From Aspidapion aeneum (lineage: Eukaryota > Arthropoda > Insecta > Coleoptera > Brentidae), in the NCBI GenBank assembly GCA_963576565.1, contig OY755044.1:42650735-42714734 (forward strand): a DNA stretch of 64,000 nucleotides. Reading direction: 5' to 3'. A program made the translations under genes and the position numbers. Shown here one piece after another: positions 41,687 through 54,659 of this stretch. Under the pieces are notes generated by a model. That model had not been told where the DNA came from. It saw only the letters and a program-made list of their open reading frames with translations, and ran no database searches. Numbering within the stretch: position 1 is the first letter of the stretch; each line of letters starts with the position of its first letter.

Positions 41687-42012
41687 CGGCTCTGAAAAAT
41701 TAAAGATTGCTATATATTTAGAAAAAATTGTTTTGCAAGAATATAGTAAAAACAATCTCAAAACGGGCTTTATTTTTAAAAAAATTAAATATTCATGAAC
41801 CGTCATTCCAACTTCAATATTTTGAAGACAAGACAATCAGAAAAAAAAACATTTCCAAACTAGTAAGAACCTTTCATTTTGAAATTTGTATTGGAGAACT
41901 TGGCTTTACTTTGTTTTTTTTTTGTTATGATTATATTAGCTCACACTACTACTATACTATAGTAGTGTGAACTATGGTGATCCTAATTTTTTCGAGAAAA
42001 AAAAAGCTGCTA
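41687..42012 (+). mobile_element. R1/LOA-like LINE copy A: 326-bp 3' end only
   Basis: Matches 52745-53070 base for base as far as I can see, with a constant offset of 11,058. Upstream of CGGCTCTGAAAAATT the two sequences part. It is therefore a severely 5'-truncated insertion holding only the 3' UTR. The 3' boundary is at exactly the same base as in copy B, followed at once by CTGT repeats. A terminal stem-loop lies at 41941-41970 (11-bp stem, 8-nt loop). Confidence 0.85.
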
Positions 42013-45000
42013 CTGTCTGTCTGTCTGTCTGTCTGTCTGTCTGTCTGTCTGTCTGTCTGTCTGTCTGTCTGTCTGTCTGTCTGTCTGTCTGTCTGTCTGT
42101 CTGTCTGTCTGTCTGTCTGTCTGTCTGTCTGTCTGTCTGTCTGTCTGTCTGTCTGTCTGTCTGTCTGTCTGTCTGTCTGTCTGTCTGTCTGTCTGTCTGT
42201 CTGTCTGTCTGTCTGTCTGTCTGTCTGTCTGTCTGTCTGTCTGTCTGTCTGTCTGTCTGTCTGTCTGTCTGTCTGTCTGTCTGTCTGTCTGTCTGTCTGT
42301 CTGTCTGTCTGTCTGTCTGTCTGTCTGTCTGTCTGTCTGTCTGTCTGTCTGTCTGTCTGTCTGTCTGTCTGTCTGTCTGTCTGTCTGTCTGTCTGTCTGT
42401 CTGTCTGTCTGTCTGTCTGTCTGTCTGTCTGTCTGTCTGTCTGTCTGTCTGTCTGTCTGTCTGTCTGTCTGTCTGTCTGTCTGTCTGTCTGTCTGTCTGT
42501 CTGTCTGTCTGTCTGTCTGTCTGTCTGTCTGTCTGTCTGTCTGTCTGTCTGTCTGTCTGTCTGTCTGTCTGTCTGTCTGTCTGTCTGTCTGTCTGTCTGT
42601 CTGTCTGTCTGTCTGTCTGTCTGTCTGTCTGTCTGTCTGTCTGTCTGTCTGTCTGTCTGTCTGTCTGTCTGTCTGTCTGTCTGTCTGTCTGTCTGTCTGT
42701 CTGTCTGTCTGTCTGTCTGTCTGTCTGTCTGTCTGTCTGTCTGTCTGTCTGTCTGTCTGTCTGTCTGTCTGTCTGTCTGTCTGTCTGTCTGTCTGTCTGT
42801 CTGTCTGTCTGTCTGTCTGTCTGTCTGTCTGTCTGTCTGTCTGTCTGTCTGTCTGTCTGTCTGTCTGTCTGTCTGTCTGTCTGTCTGTCTGTCTGTCTGT
42901 CTGTCTGTCTGTCTGTCTGTCTGTCTGTCTGTCTGTCTGTCTGTCTGTCTGTCTGTCTGTCTGTCTGTCTGTCTGTCTGTCTGTCTGTCTGTCTGTCTGT
43001 CTGTCTGTCTGTCTGTCTGTCTGTCTGTCTGTCTGTCTGTCTGTCTGTCTGTCTGTCTGTCTGTCTGTCTGTCTGTCTGTCTGTCTGTCTGTCTGTCTGT
43101 CTGTCTGTCTGTCTGTCTGTCTGTCTGTCTGTCTGTCTGTCTGTCTGTCTGTCTGTCTGTCTGTCTGTCTGTCTGTCTGTCTGTCTGTCTGTCTGTCTGT
43201 CTGTCTGTCTGTCTGTCTGTCTGTCTGTCTGTCTGTCTGTCTGTCTGTCTGTCTGTCTGTCTGTCTGTCTGTCTGTCTGTCTGTCTGTCTGTCTGTCTGT
43301 CTGTCTGTCTGTCTGTCTGTCTGTCTGTCTGTCTGTCTGTCTGTCTGTCTGTCTGTCTGTCTGTCTGTCTGTCTGTCTGTCTGTCTGTCTGTCTGTCTGT
43401 CTGTCTGTCTGTCTGTCTGTCTGTCTGTCTGTCTGTCTGTCTGTCTGTCTGTCTGTCTGTCTGTCTGTCTGTCTGTCTGTCTGTCTGTCTGTCTGTCTGT
43501 CTGTCTGTCTGTCTGTCTGTCTGTCTGTCTGTCTGTCTGTCTGTCTGTCTGTCTGTCTGTCTGTCTGTCTGTCTGTCTGTCTGTCTGTCTGTCTGTCTGT
43601 CTGTCTGTCTGTCTGTCTGTCTGTCTGTCTGTCTGTCTGTCTGTCTGTCTGTCTGTCTGTCTGTCTGTCTGTCTGTCTGTCTGTCTGTCTGTCTGTCTGT
43701 CTGTCTGTCTGTCTGTCTGTCTGTCTGTCTGTCTGTCTGTCTGTCTGTCTGTCTGTCTGTCTGTCTGTCTGTCTGTCTGTCTGTCTGTCTGTCTGTCTGT
43801 CTGTCTGTCTGTCTGTCTGTCTGTCTGTCTGTCTGTCTGTCTGTCTGTCTGTCTGTCTGTCTGTCTGTCTGTCTGTCTGTCTGTCTGTCTGTCTGTCTGT
43901 CTGTCTGTCTGTCTGTCTGTCTGTCTGTCTGTCTGTCTGTCTGTCTGTCTGTCTGTCTGTCTGTCTGTCTGTCTGTCTGTCTGTCTGTCTGTCTGTCTGT
44001 CTGTCTGTCTGTCTGTCTGTCTGTCTGTCTGTCTGTCTGTCTGTCTGTCTGTCTGTCTGTCTGTCTGTCTGTCTGTCTGTCTGTCTGTCTGTCTGTCTGT
44101 CTGTCTGTCTGTCTGTCTGTCTGTCTGTCTGTCTGTCTGTCTGTCTGTCTGTCTGTCTGTCTGTCTGTCTGTCTGTCTGTCTGTCTGTCTGTCTGTCTGT
44201 CTGTCTGTCTGTCTGTCTGTCTGTCTGTCTGTCTGTCTGTCTGTCTGTCTGTCTGTCTGTCTGTCTGTCTGTCTGTCTGTCTGTCTGTCTGTCTGTCTGT
44301 CTGTCTGTCTGTCTGTCTGTCTGTCTGTCTGTCTGTCTGTCTGTCTGTCTGTCTGTCTGTCTGTCTGTCTGTCTGTCTGTCTGTCTGTCTGTCTGTCTGT
44401 CTGTCTGTCTGTCTGTCTGTCTGTCTGTCTGTCTGTCTGTCTGTCTGTCTGTCTGTCTGTCTGTCTGTCTGTCTGTCTGTCTGTCTGTCTGTCTGTCTGT
44501 CTGTCTGTCTGTCTGTCTGTCTGTCTGTCTGTCTGTCTGTCTGTCTGTCTGTCTGTCTGTCTGTCTGTCTGTCTGTCTGTCTGTCTGTCTGTCTGTCTGT
44601 CTGTCTGTCTGTCTGTCTGTCTGTCTGTCTGTCTGTCTGTCTGTCTGTCTGTCTGTCTGTCTGTCTGTCTGTCTGTCTGTCTGTCTGTCTGTCTGTCTGT
44701 CTGTCTGTCTGTCTGTCTGTCTGTCTGTCTGTCTGTCTGTCTGTCTGTCTGTCTGTCTGTCTGTCTGTCTGTCTGTCTGTCTGTCTGTCTGTCTGTCTGT
44801 CTGTCTGTCTGTCTGTCTGTCTGTCTGTCTGTCTGTCTGTCTGTCTGTCTGTCTGTCTGTCTGTCTGTCTGTCTGTCTGTCTGTCTGTCTGTCTGTCTGT
44901 CTGTCTGTCTGTCTGTCTGTCTGTCTGTCTGTCTGTCTGTCTGTCTGTCTGTCTGTCTGTCTGTCTGTCTGTCTGTCTGTCTGTCTGTCTGTCTGTCTGT

Positions 45001-53028: not shown

Positions 53029-53070
53029 ACTATGGTGATCCTAATTTTTTCGAGAAAAAAAAAGCTGCTA

Positions 53071-54659
53071 CTGTCTGTCTGTCTGTCTGTCTGTCTGTCT
53101 GTCTGTCTGTCTGTCTGTCTGTCTGTCTGTCTGTCTGTCTGTCTGTCTGTCTGTCTGTCTGTCTGTCTGTCTGTCTGTCTGTCTGTCTGTCTGTCTGTCT
53201 GTCTGTCTGTCTGTCTGTCTGTCTGTCTGTCTGTCTGTCTGTCTGTCTGTCTGTCTGTCTGTCTGTCTGTCTGTCTGTCTGTCTGTCTGTCTGTCTGTCT
53301 GTCTGTCTGTCTGTCTGTCTGTCTGTCTGTCTGTCTGTCTGTCTGTCTGTCTGTCTGTCTGTCTGTCTGTCTGTCTGTCTGTCTGTCTGTCTGTCTGTCT
53401 GTCTGTCTGTCTGTCTGTCTGTCTGTCTGTCTGTCTGTCTGTCTGTCTGTCTGTCTGTCTGTCTGTCTGTCTGTCTGTCTGTCTGTCTGTCTGTCTGTCT
53501 GTCTGTCTGTCTGTCTGTCTGTCTGTCTGTCTGTCTGTCTGTCTGTCTGTCTGTCTGTCTGTCTGTCTGTCTGTCTGTCTGTCTGTCTGTCTGTCTGTCT
53601 GTCTGTCTGTCTGTCTGTCTGTCTGTCTGTCTGTCTGTCTGTCTGTCTGTCTGTCTGTCTGTCTGTCTGTCTGTCTGTCTGTCTGTCTGTCTGTCTGTCT
53701 GTCTGTCTGTCTGTCTGTCTGTCTGTCTGTCTGTCTGTCTGTCTGTCTGTCTGTCTGTCTGTCTGTCTGTCTGTCTGTCTGTCTGTCTGTCTGTCTGTCT
53801 GTCTGTCTGTCTGTCTGTCTGTCTGTCTGTCTGTCTGTCTGTCTGTCTGTCTGTCTGTCTGTCTGTCTGTCTGTCTGTCTGTCTGTCTGTCTGTCTGTCT
53901 GTCTGTCTGTCTGTCTGTCTGTCTGTCTGTCTGTCTGTCTGTCTGTCTGTCTGTCTGTCTGTCTGTCTGTCTGTCTGTCTGTCTGTCTGTCTGTCTGTCT
54001 GTCTGTCTGTCTGTCTGTCTGTCTGTCTGTCTGTCTGTCTGTCTGTCTGTCTGTCTGTCTGTCTGTCTGTCTGTCTGTCTGTCTGTCTGTCTGTCTGTCT
54101 GTCTGTCTGTCTGTCTGTCTGTCTGTCTGTCTGTCTGTCTGTCTGTCTGTCTGTCTGTCTGTCTGTCTGTCTGTCTGTCTGTCTGTCTGTCTGTCTGTCT
54201 GTCTGTCTGTCTGTCTGTCTGTCTGTCTGTCTGTCTGTCTGTCTGTCTGTCTGTCTGTCTGTCTGTCTGTCTGTCTGTCTGTCTGTCTGTCTGTCTGTCT
54301 GTCTGTCTGTCTGTCTGTCTGTCTGTCTGTCTGTCTGTCTGTCTGTCTGTCTGTCTGTCTGTCTGTCTGTCTGTCTGTCTGTCTGTCTGTCTGTCTGTCT
54401 GTCTGTCTGTCTGTCTGTCTGTCTGTCTGTCTGTCTGTCTGTCTGTCTGTCTGTCTGTCTGTCTGTCTGTCTGTCTGTCTGTCTGTCTGTCTGTCTGTCT
54501 GTCTGTCTGTCTGTCTGTCTGTCTGTCTGTCTGTCTGTCTGTCTGTCTGTCTGTCTGTCTGTCTGTCTGTCTGTCTGTCTGTCTGTCTGTCTGTCTGTCT
54601 GTCTGTCTGTCTGTCTGTCTGTCTGTCTGTCTGTCTGTCTGTCTGTCTGTCTGTCTGTC
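53071..54659. repeat. 1,589-bp (CTGT)n microsatellite
   Basis: About 397 uninterrupted units starting at the base after the LINE B 3' end (…GCTGCTA|CTGT) and ending at 54659 against AATTTTGGTGG flank. No interruption seen. As in the first array, the long reading frames through it are artefacts. Confidence 0.97.

What the first reader, a model, noticed from the sequence alone, without database searches (positions are those of the whole stretch)
41687..53071. Two copies of one LINE end at the same base in CTGT repeats: a tetranucleotide tail or a microsatellite-specific LINE
Copy A (326 bp) and copy B (3.9 kb) have 3' ends that look identical, and both pass into CTGT at exactly the same nucleotide. 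Copy A has no CTGT on its left, so its array is more simply explained as the LINE's own tail than as a pre-existing target. I infer that this LINE ends in CTGT repeats instead of poly(A) and seeds giant arrays, and that copy B landed in the tail of copy A. Known parallels are the TAA tail of the I factor and R1-clade LINEs that target simple repeats. A tail expanding to kilobases would be new to my knowledge.
Basis: partly seen in the sequence, partly recalled or inferred. Interest (0 to 1): 0.87.

Follow-up and report, generated by a model that had tools for sequence, protein, structure and literature searches.

The report
LINE homing to transposon-borne CTGT tracts
In this insect genome (likely a weevil) a LINE jumping gene sits almost always inside tracts of repeated CTGT, many of them carried by a second mobile element, and it likely homes to them by pairing a short CTGT tail of its own; the window's copy is broken at both ends and was probably rearranged after it landed.

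Summary
The described sequence is there: two identical 326-bp blocks, each running into CTGT at the same base, with arrays of 7,142 and 1,589 bp. The blocks are not LINE. They are a mosaic of three other repeats, and copy A reads straight into one of them across its supposed start. Only 49155-52744 is LINE, and it lacks its real 3' end.

The family's real 3' end, GCGACGCCCCC, enters a CTGT-type array in 34 of 36 places read. Such an array also lies on the 5' side of 17 of 19 readable copies (24 in all). Variants match on both sides at three copies. Arms of a DINE-1-like element adjoin many arrays. Sampled copies of that element without the LINE have 24-152 bp arrays (37 of 39); one has about 2.3 kb. 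So this is a microsatellite-specific LINE, and giant arrays exist without it.

The tail idea survives in miniature: in 9 of 9 arrays of periodic variants exactly three pure CTGT units follow the LINE end. The 326-bp duplication looks younger than the LINE. Mechanism steps are inferred.

The parts
41111..41831 (+). Non-LINE interspersed repeat (2,025 candidates in the first look, 40 scored); copy A's first 145 bp are its interior; 41392-41642 does not align to the other copies
   Evidence: about 84-95% to L003-L008 over 41114-41368 and 41643-41831, without a break at 41687
41687..42012 (+). 326-bp block, copy A: mosaic of three repeats, original location
41842..41916 (+). Second interspersed repeat inside the block
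   Evidence: 38 further places among the 40 scored (94 candidates), 32 of them at 95-100%, mostly about 70 bp
41936..42011 (+). Left arm of a DINE-1/HINE-like element that normally carries the CTGT microsatellite (its array-proximal part is missing here)
   Evidence: 93% to L009 from 6276
42013..49154 (+). First CTGT array, 7,142 bp, one mismatch (49123)
49155..52744 (+). LINE fragment, truncated at the 5' end within ORF1 and broken at the 3' end within the 3' UTR; endonuclease 49827-50669, reverse transcriptase 50756-51538, weak RNase H 51450-52709; frames broken
52745..53070 (+). Second, identical copy of the 326-bp block, standing where the LINE's own 3' end should be
53071..54659 (+). Second CTGT array, 1,589 bp, no mismatch

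Best explanation
The window holds one 5'- and 3'-broken copy of a LINE family whose copies lie inside CTGT microsatellite arrays, many of them flanked by the arms of a DINE-1-like element; it likely inserts there by cutting the array and priming reverse transcription from it, probably after a short CTGT tail on its RNA pairs with the cut strand. Shown: the real 3' end enters a CTGT-type array, always on the same strand, in 34 of 36 places read; such arrays lie on the 5' side of 17 of 19 readable copies; variants match on both sides at three copies; the carrier element exists with its array and without the LINE. Inferred: that the arrays came first, target-primed reverse transcription, an RNA ending in about three CUGU units, and that the window's duplicated 326-bp block arose after insertion by an unequal exchange or tandem duplication that replaced the LINE's 3' end.
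For: 3' junctions: 34 of 36 places pass from the complete 3' end straight into a CTGT-type array, all in the same orientation (33 by pattern after removing 4 re-fetched duplicates, plus L068 read; 36 of the 40 matches were read, and 40 of 92 candidates had been scored). This includes 8 places of a sister subfamily (79-80% at the 3' end) and three stubs of about 81 bp. 5' side: 17 of 19 readable copies of 24, including copies truncated at different points (L020, L026, L028, L034, L035). Same variant units on both sides: L018/L044/L047 (ATGTCTGTCTGT), L071 (ATGTCTGT), L020/L049 (CTGC units). An arm of the carrier next to the array at the window and 14 other copies; both arms around one LINE at L012/L040/L046 and L049. 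Full-length 5' junctions read ...CTG|CGGTTAG in 4 of 5 (two of the four are a tandem duplicate pair). Carriers without the LINE: 37 of 39 sampled have 24-152 bp arrays, median 56 bp; one has about 2.3 kb and no LINE. Short tail: the first run is exactly 3 CTGT in 9 of 9 arrays of periodic variants, while only 8 of 265 later runs in those arrays are 3. The endonuclease matches TRAS1 and R1Bm endonucleases; both ORFs are open in L012 and L013. Younger duplication: LINE B has 31 private substitutions in 3,527 sites against nine other copies, so about 5.7 differences would be expected in the 326-bp pair if it were as old, and there are none.
Against: L021 and L036 have no CTGT on the 5' side, and L053 and L069 lack the complete 3' end. 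L025 and L028 meet the array with a LINE broken near base 1,640 of the query, and L024 has only two CTGT units before an interruption. Not every array lies in the carrier as far as read: the right flanks at L051 and L068 and the left flank at L028 are other sequence. Only best-scoring copies were read. The nine 'three-unit' arrays were picked because their variants are periodic; in arrays with scattered or local variants the first pure run is 2, 6, 9, 11, 12, 19, 39, 56 or 148 units (L024, L023, L035, L061, L067, L034, L021, L020, L012). L075-L080 may be related by segmental duplication, so the nine may be fewer independent cases (L018, L062 and L071 look independent). No RNA was seen. The age argument uses private substitutions that may partly predate the insertion, and gene conversion could also keep the 326-bp pair identical.
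Confidence: 0.85

Rival explanations
1. Tail model: the LINE ends in CTGT repeats of its own that grow into giant arrays, and arrays mark its insertions.
For: 34 of 36 3' ends read are followed by CTGT, and about three units do seem to come with the LINE. The eight left-hand arrays measured beside LINE copies are at least 620 to 7,140 bp, against a median of 56 bp in carriers without the LINE.
Against: Arrays lie on the 5' side as well, with the same variants as on the 3' side at the three copies where both sides show them. At L012 and L049 the array's flanks are the two arms of the carrier. Carriers without the LINE have arrays, one of about 2.3 kb. Copy A is not LINE.
Confidence: 0.05
2. The window's 326-bp repeat is a very long target-site duplication made by one aberrant insertion: the first nick at 41686/41687, the second within the CTGT array, with priming inside the LINE's 3' UTR.
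For: The LINE is flanked directly by the repeat (326 bp plus CTGT on both sides). L070 shows a duplicated stretch of carrier arm around an 81-bp LINE stub, so long duplications can occur. Other copies with broken 3' ends exist (L025, L028).
Against: It needs a first nick outside the array. The pair shows 0 differences where about 5.7 are expected from LINE B's own decay.
Confidence: 0.25
3. The window's structure is an assembly artefact joining LINE-bearing and empty haplotypes across near-identical arrays.
For: Pure arrays of 7.1 and 1.6 kb are hard to assemble (general knowledge), and the two blocks are identical.
Against: The join 52744/52745 has almost no shared sequence (1 bp by eye), whereas mis-assemblies usually join at shared sequence (general knowledge). 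It would not touch the family-wide result.
Confidence: 0.15

Closest known systems
R1-clade microsatellite-specific LINEs: Mino in AC repeats (PMC3124438, passages seen) and Waldo (its (ACAY)n target is recalled from Kojima and Fujiwara 2003, not read)
   Same: LINE with APE-type endonuclease and RT found in one simple repeat; endonuclease matches TRAS1 and R1Bm among solved chains
   Different: The target is CTGT/ACAG, in many copies a microsatellite that another transposon carries; about three repeat units seem to be brought by the element
R1 of the 28S genes (PMC2718515, passages seen)
   Same: Precise 3' junction; [quoted passage not shown]
   Different: The target is a microsatellite; duplication length cannot be read inside an array
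DINE-1 / mini-me / HINE elements with a GTCY microsatellite (PMC2374699 and PMC4067079, passages seen; Coates et al. 2011 seen only as a title in a reference list)
   Same: The carrier here has AGCTCACAC...GTGTGAGCT inverted repeats near both ends and a CTGT (GTCT) microsatellite of variable length
   Different: This is the host of the insertion, not the LINE; no Helentron partner was looked for
Lepidopteran RTE elements whose short 3' UTR regularly consists of SSR units (PMC2887409, abstract seen)
   Same: Link between a LINE 3' end and microsatellites
   Different: There the element is proposed to make the microsatellite; here arrays exist without it

Membership tests
Microsatellite-specific LINE | Complete 3' ends joined to one simple repeat in most copies | tested here: met
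   34 of 36 places read, of 40 matches
Microsatellite-specific LINE | The same repeat on the 5' side, including truncated copies | tested here: met
   17 of 19 readable copies of 24 (4 masked, 1 not examined); in 5 of the 17 the array was seen but the junction base lay outside the fetched stretch
Microsatellite-specific LINE | Target exists without the element | tested here: met
   37 of 39 sampled carriers have a 24-152 bp array running into the right arm, one an empty array of about 2.3 kb, one unresolved
R1 clade | R1-type APE endonuclease | tested here: met
   Over the endonuclease the matches are TRAS1 (1wdu, residues 4-207) and R1Bm (2ei9 and others); L1 chains have the best named E-values overall but match residues 273-754 only
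R1 clade | RT phylogeny inside R1 | not tested
   No labelled reference RTs were at hand; one relative is named R1 by its source (P0028)
R1 clade | ORF1 with CCHC knuckles; ORF2 with endonuclease, RT and RNase H | tested here: inconclusive
   Endonuclease and RT clear; RNase H (E 1.6e-4, below the curated cut-off) and ORF1 zinc knuckle (E 0.047) weak; CCHC-like pattern seen by eye
LINE with its own long repeat tail (tail model) | Repeat only on the 3' side, with varied 5' flanks | tested here: not met
   Arrays on both sides, with matching variants at L018, L071 and L020
DINE-1 / HINE carrier | Subterminal inverted repeats and a GTCY microsatellite | tested here: met
   Inverted repeats read at both ends of the L009 copy; microsatellite also in the L081-L120 survey
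DINE-1 / HINE carrier | Helentron Rep/Helicase partner with the same ends | not tested
   No search made

The most novel reading that the evidence does not exclude
The LINE's RNA ends in exactly three CUGU units, a 12-base guide that pairs with the nicked array and sets where copying starts. The element thus carries a piece of its own target, and lives as a third tier: a rolling-circle transposon spreads the microsatellite, the microsatellite grows to kilobases, and the LINE colonises it. Two diverged subfamilies keep this homing, so CTGT homing is an old trait of the lineage.
Probability: 0.45. Interest if true: 0.72.

Novelty: new variant of a known kind. Interest (0 to 1): 0.58.

Why it matters
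Variant-bearing arrays work as a natural tracer: they show which repeat units came with the LINE and which were there before, something pure repeats such as telomeres or (AC)n cannot show. That makes an old question, how much target sequence the RNA of a site-specific LINE carries, readable from genome sequence. It also points to a chain of dependence in which one mobile element spreads the landing site of another, and it sets kilobase CTGT arrays apart from the LINE that inhabits them.

Tried and rejected
Rejected: copy A as a LINE copy; the LINE as the general source of the arrays; the window's 326-bp pair as proof of a LINE 3' end. Considered and kept as rivals: a long target-site duplication and an assembly error.

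Led nowhere: Pfam on the window's ORF1 piece and the piece after it gave nothing; protein searches gave no clade label beyond one R1 name. Paper listings named no CTGT- or ACAG-specific LINE, but none of these searches used the motif itself as a term, and Repbase and most subscription papers are not held, so this says little. Not read: 4 of 40 matches; candidates beyond the 40 scored; the 5' side of L030. The right flank of the second array (54660 on) does not match the carrier's right arm and was not explained. No tree was built.
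Full report
What is in the window. The two 326-bp blocks at 41687-42012 and 52745-53070 are identical base for base and both enter CTGT at the same base; the arrays are 7,142 bp (one mismatch) and 1,589 bp (none). Between the first array and the second block lies a LINE fragment, 49155-52744, with endonuclease, reverse transcriptase and weak RNase H matches in broken frames.

The blocks are not LINE. A search of the window's own genome (1.286 Gb, 149 contigs) with the 326 bp gave full-length matches only at the two window places; of the other 39 matches 38 cover about bases 1-146 and one covers bases 1-41; 40 of 2,025 candidates were scored. 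Of the eight loci cut out, the six outside the window (L003-L008) show a longer repeat, and copy A aligns with all six without a break across 41687. Bases 41842-41916 belong to another dispersed repeat, and 41936-42011 to the left arm of a third element, one copy of which, about 17 kb to the right of the second block, carries its own CTGT stretch. Three repeats meeting in one order is a single-locus mosaic, so its second occurrence is a local duplication.

The LINE family. The LINE search gave 71 matches (40 of 2,117 candidates scored); joining pieces and leaving out the matches at 66-72%, I told 24 copies apart. Two of them, L012 and L013, have both reading frames open. The real 3' end lies some 630 to 710 bp beyond the point where the window copy stops, and reads ...GCTTGACTTCGGCGACGCCCCC followed by CTGT. 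A search with the last 200 bp gave 40 matches (40 of 92 candidates scored). I read 36 of them; the 4 unread belong to the sister subfamily. In 34 the complete 3' end is followed directly by a CTGT-type array, on the same strand each time. These arrays range from more than a kilobase down to 6 and 4 units (L070, L072), and at L024 two units precede an interruption. L053 lacks the last 25 bp before its array, and L069 is broken. Eight of the 34 belong to a sister subfamily at 79-80% (67-72% in the RT region).

The 5' side. Of the 24 copies four are masked and one was not examined. Of the other 19, 17 have a CTGT-type array on the 5' side and two (L021, L036) do not. In five of the 17 the array was read but the junction base lay outside the stretch. 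Truncated copies start at different points yet still follow an array. Four of five full-length junctions read CTG|CGGTTAG.

Target, not tail. At three copies both sides show the same variants: ATGTCTGTCTGT at L018/L044/L047, ATGTCTGT at L071, CTGC units at L020/L049. Next to the arrays of the window and 14 other copies lies an arm of one element, left arm on the left and right arm on the right; both are seen around the LINE at L012/L040/L046 and L049. Other copies were not read far enough, and at L051, L068 and the left of L028 the flank is something else. The element has AGCTCACAC...GTGTGAGCT inverted repeats near both ends and a CTGT microsatellite, as described for DINE-1 and HINE elements with GTCY microsatellites (PMC2374699, PMC4067079, passages seen). 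I did not look for a Helentron partner.

Empty targets. I read 39 of the 40 scored matches to the left arm (620 candidates; the remaining one is the query itself). These are the best matches, not a random sample. In 37 the array is 24-152 bp, median 56, and runs straight into the right arm. One (L090/L101) is about 2.3 kb of pure CTGT with the right arm behind it and no LINE. One (L120) runs beyond the stretch. So arrays, including a giant one, exist without the LINE. The eight left-hand arrays that I measured beside LINE copies are long (at least 620 to 7,140 bp), but others are short (10 and 14 units on the right at L066 and L065). Whether the LINE prefers long arrays or arrays lengthen around it is not settled; simple target size would already favour long ones. 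The window arrays are much purer than LINE B's own 0.88% private change would predict for static DNA, so they have probably turned over since.

A short tail after all. In arrays made of periodic variants the first run of pure CTGT after the LINE is exactly three in 9 of 9 places, while in the same arrays only 8 of 265 later runs are three; most are two, or one at L071. I chose these nine for their periodic variants. In arrays with scattered or local variants the first run has other lengths (2, 6, 9, 11, 12, 19, 39, 56, 148), and pure arrays say nothing. At L071 at least two of the three units cannot come from the array. I infer that the RNA ends in about three CUGU units that pair with the cut strand. 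That resembles the proposal for R1 that target sequence on the RNA may anneal to the target (PMC2718515, passages seen). Six of the nine places (L075-L080) may be related by duplication.

The window's rearrangement. The window copy lost the LINE's 3' end at 52744 and continues with the duplicate of the left flank. LINE B carries 31 private substitutions in 3,527 sites against nine other copies. If the 326-bp pair were as old, about 5.7 differences would be expected; there are none, a Poisson chance of about 0.003 (my arithmetic). I therefore prefer a later event: a tandem duplication or unequal exchange between a LINE-bearing and an empty chromosome. The pair L013/L014, 10.3 kb apart in the same orientation with 0.0% difference, suggests that such segments duplicate in this genome. 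A long target-site duplication and an assembly error remain possible.

Relation to known kinds. The endonuclease matches those of TRAS1 and R1Bm among solved chains, and one relative is named R1 by its source. Mino of the R1 clade inserts into AC repeats (PMC3124438, passages seen); Waldo's target is from memory. Target-specific LINEs with an APE-type endonuclease are placed in the Tx1 and R1 clades (PMC4640811, passages seen). It works like an R1-clade microsatellite LINE; R1 membership by phylogeny was not tested. The paper listings named no CTGT- or ACAG-specific LINE, but no search used the motif as a term: a weak negative. The host is probably a weevil: a CCDC113-like gene in the window has Anthonomus, Ceutorhynchus and Rhynchophorus among its best named relatives at 56-66%.

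Noticed in passing
window 23387-25132 (-): CCDC113/CFAP263-like gene; best named relatives are weevils, which suggests the host group.
   Followed up: yes
window 11763-17024 (-): Remains of what looks like a BEL/Pao-type LTR element (name recalled): DUF5641 clear, RVT_1 and Integrase_H2C2 below their cut-offs, in neighbouring frames.
   Followed up: partly
window 37346-40217: FLYWCH and MULE transposase pieces lie between degenerate GCGCGATTTTGGTCT-type arrays on both sides, possibly the ends of a MULE-like element.
   Followed up: partly
window 31193-34698 (+) and 57036-59180 (-): Two other LINE-like elements; a reverse transcriptase match in each (33376-33990 and 57296-58135).
   Followed up: partly
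L013/L014, G000:C9:33051285-33065178: Two LINE copies 10.3 kb apart, same orientation, 0.0% difference: looks like a fresh tandem duplication of LINE plus array.
   Followed up: partly
L019/L031, G000:C3:71732040-71738526: Head-to-tail LINEs: one copy's 3' end, then [CTGT]19, then a second 5'-truncated copy; L057 and L058 show that the left flank also occurs nearby in inverted orientation.
   Followed up: partly
L025 and L028: Both LINE copies break at nearly the same place (query base about 1,630-1,640) where they meet the array or carrier arm; cause unknown.
   Followed up: no
L070, G000:C10:5348800-5349250: An 81-bp LINE stub lies between two copies of part of the carrier's right arm, like a target-site duplication of about 100 bp or more.
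   Followed up: no
L120, G000:C1:26092605-26092970: A carrier copy whose array has turned into (ATGTCTGT)n and runs beyond the stretch read.
   Followed up: no
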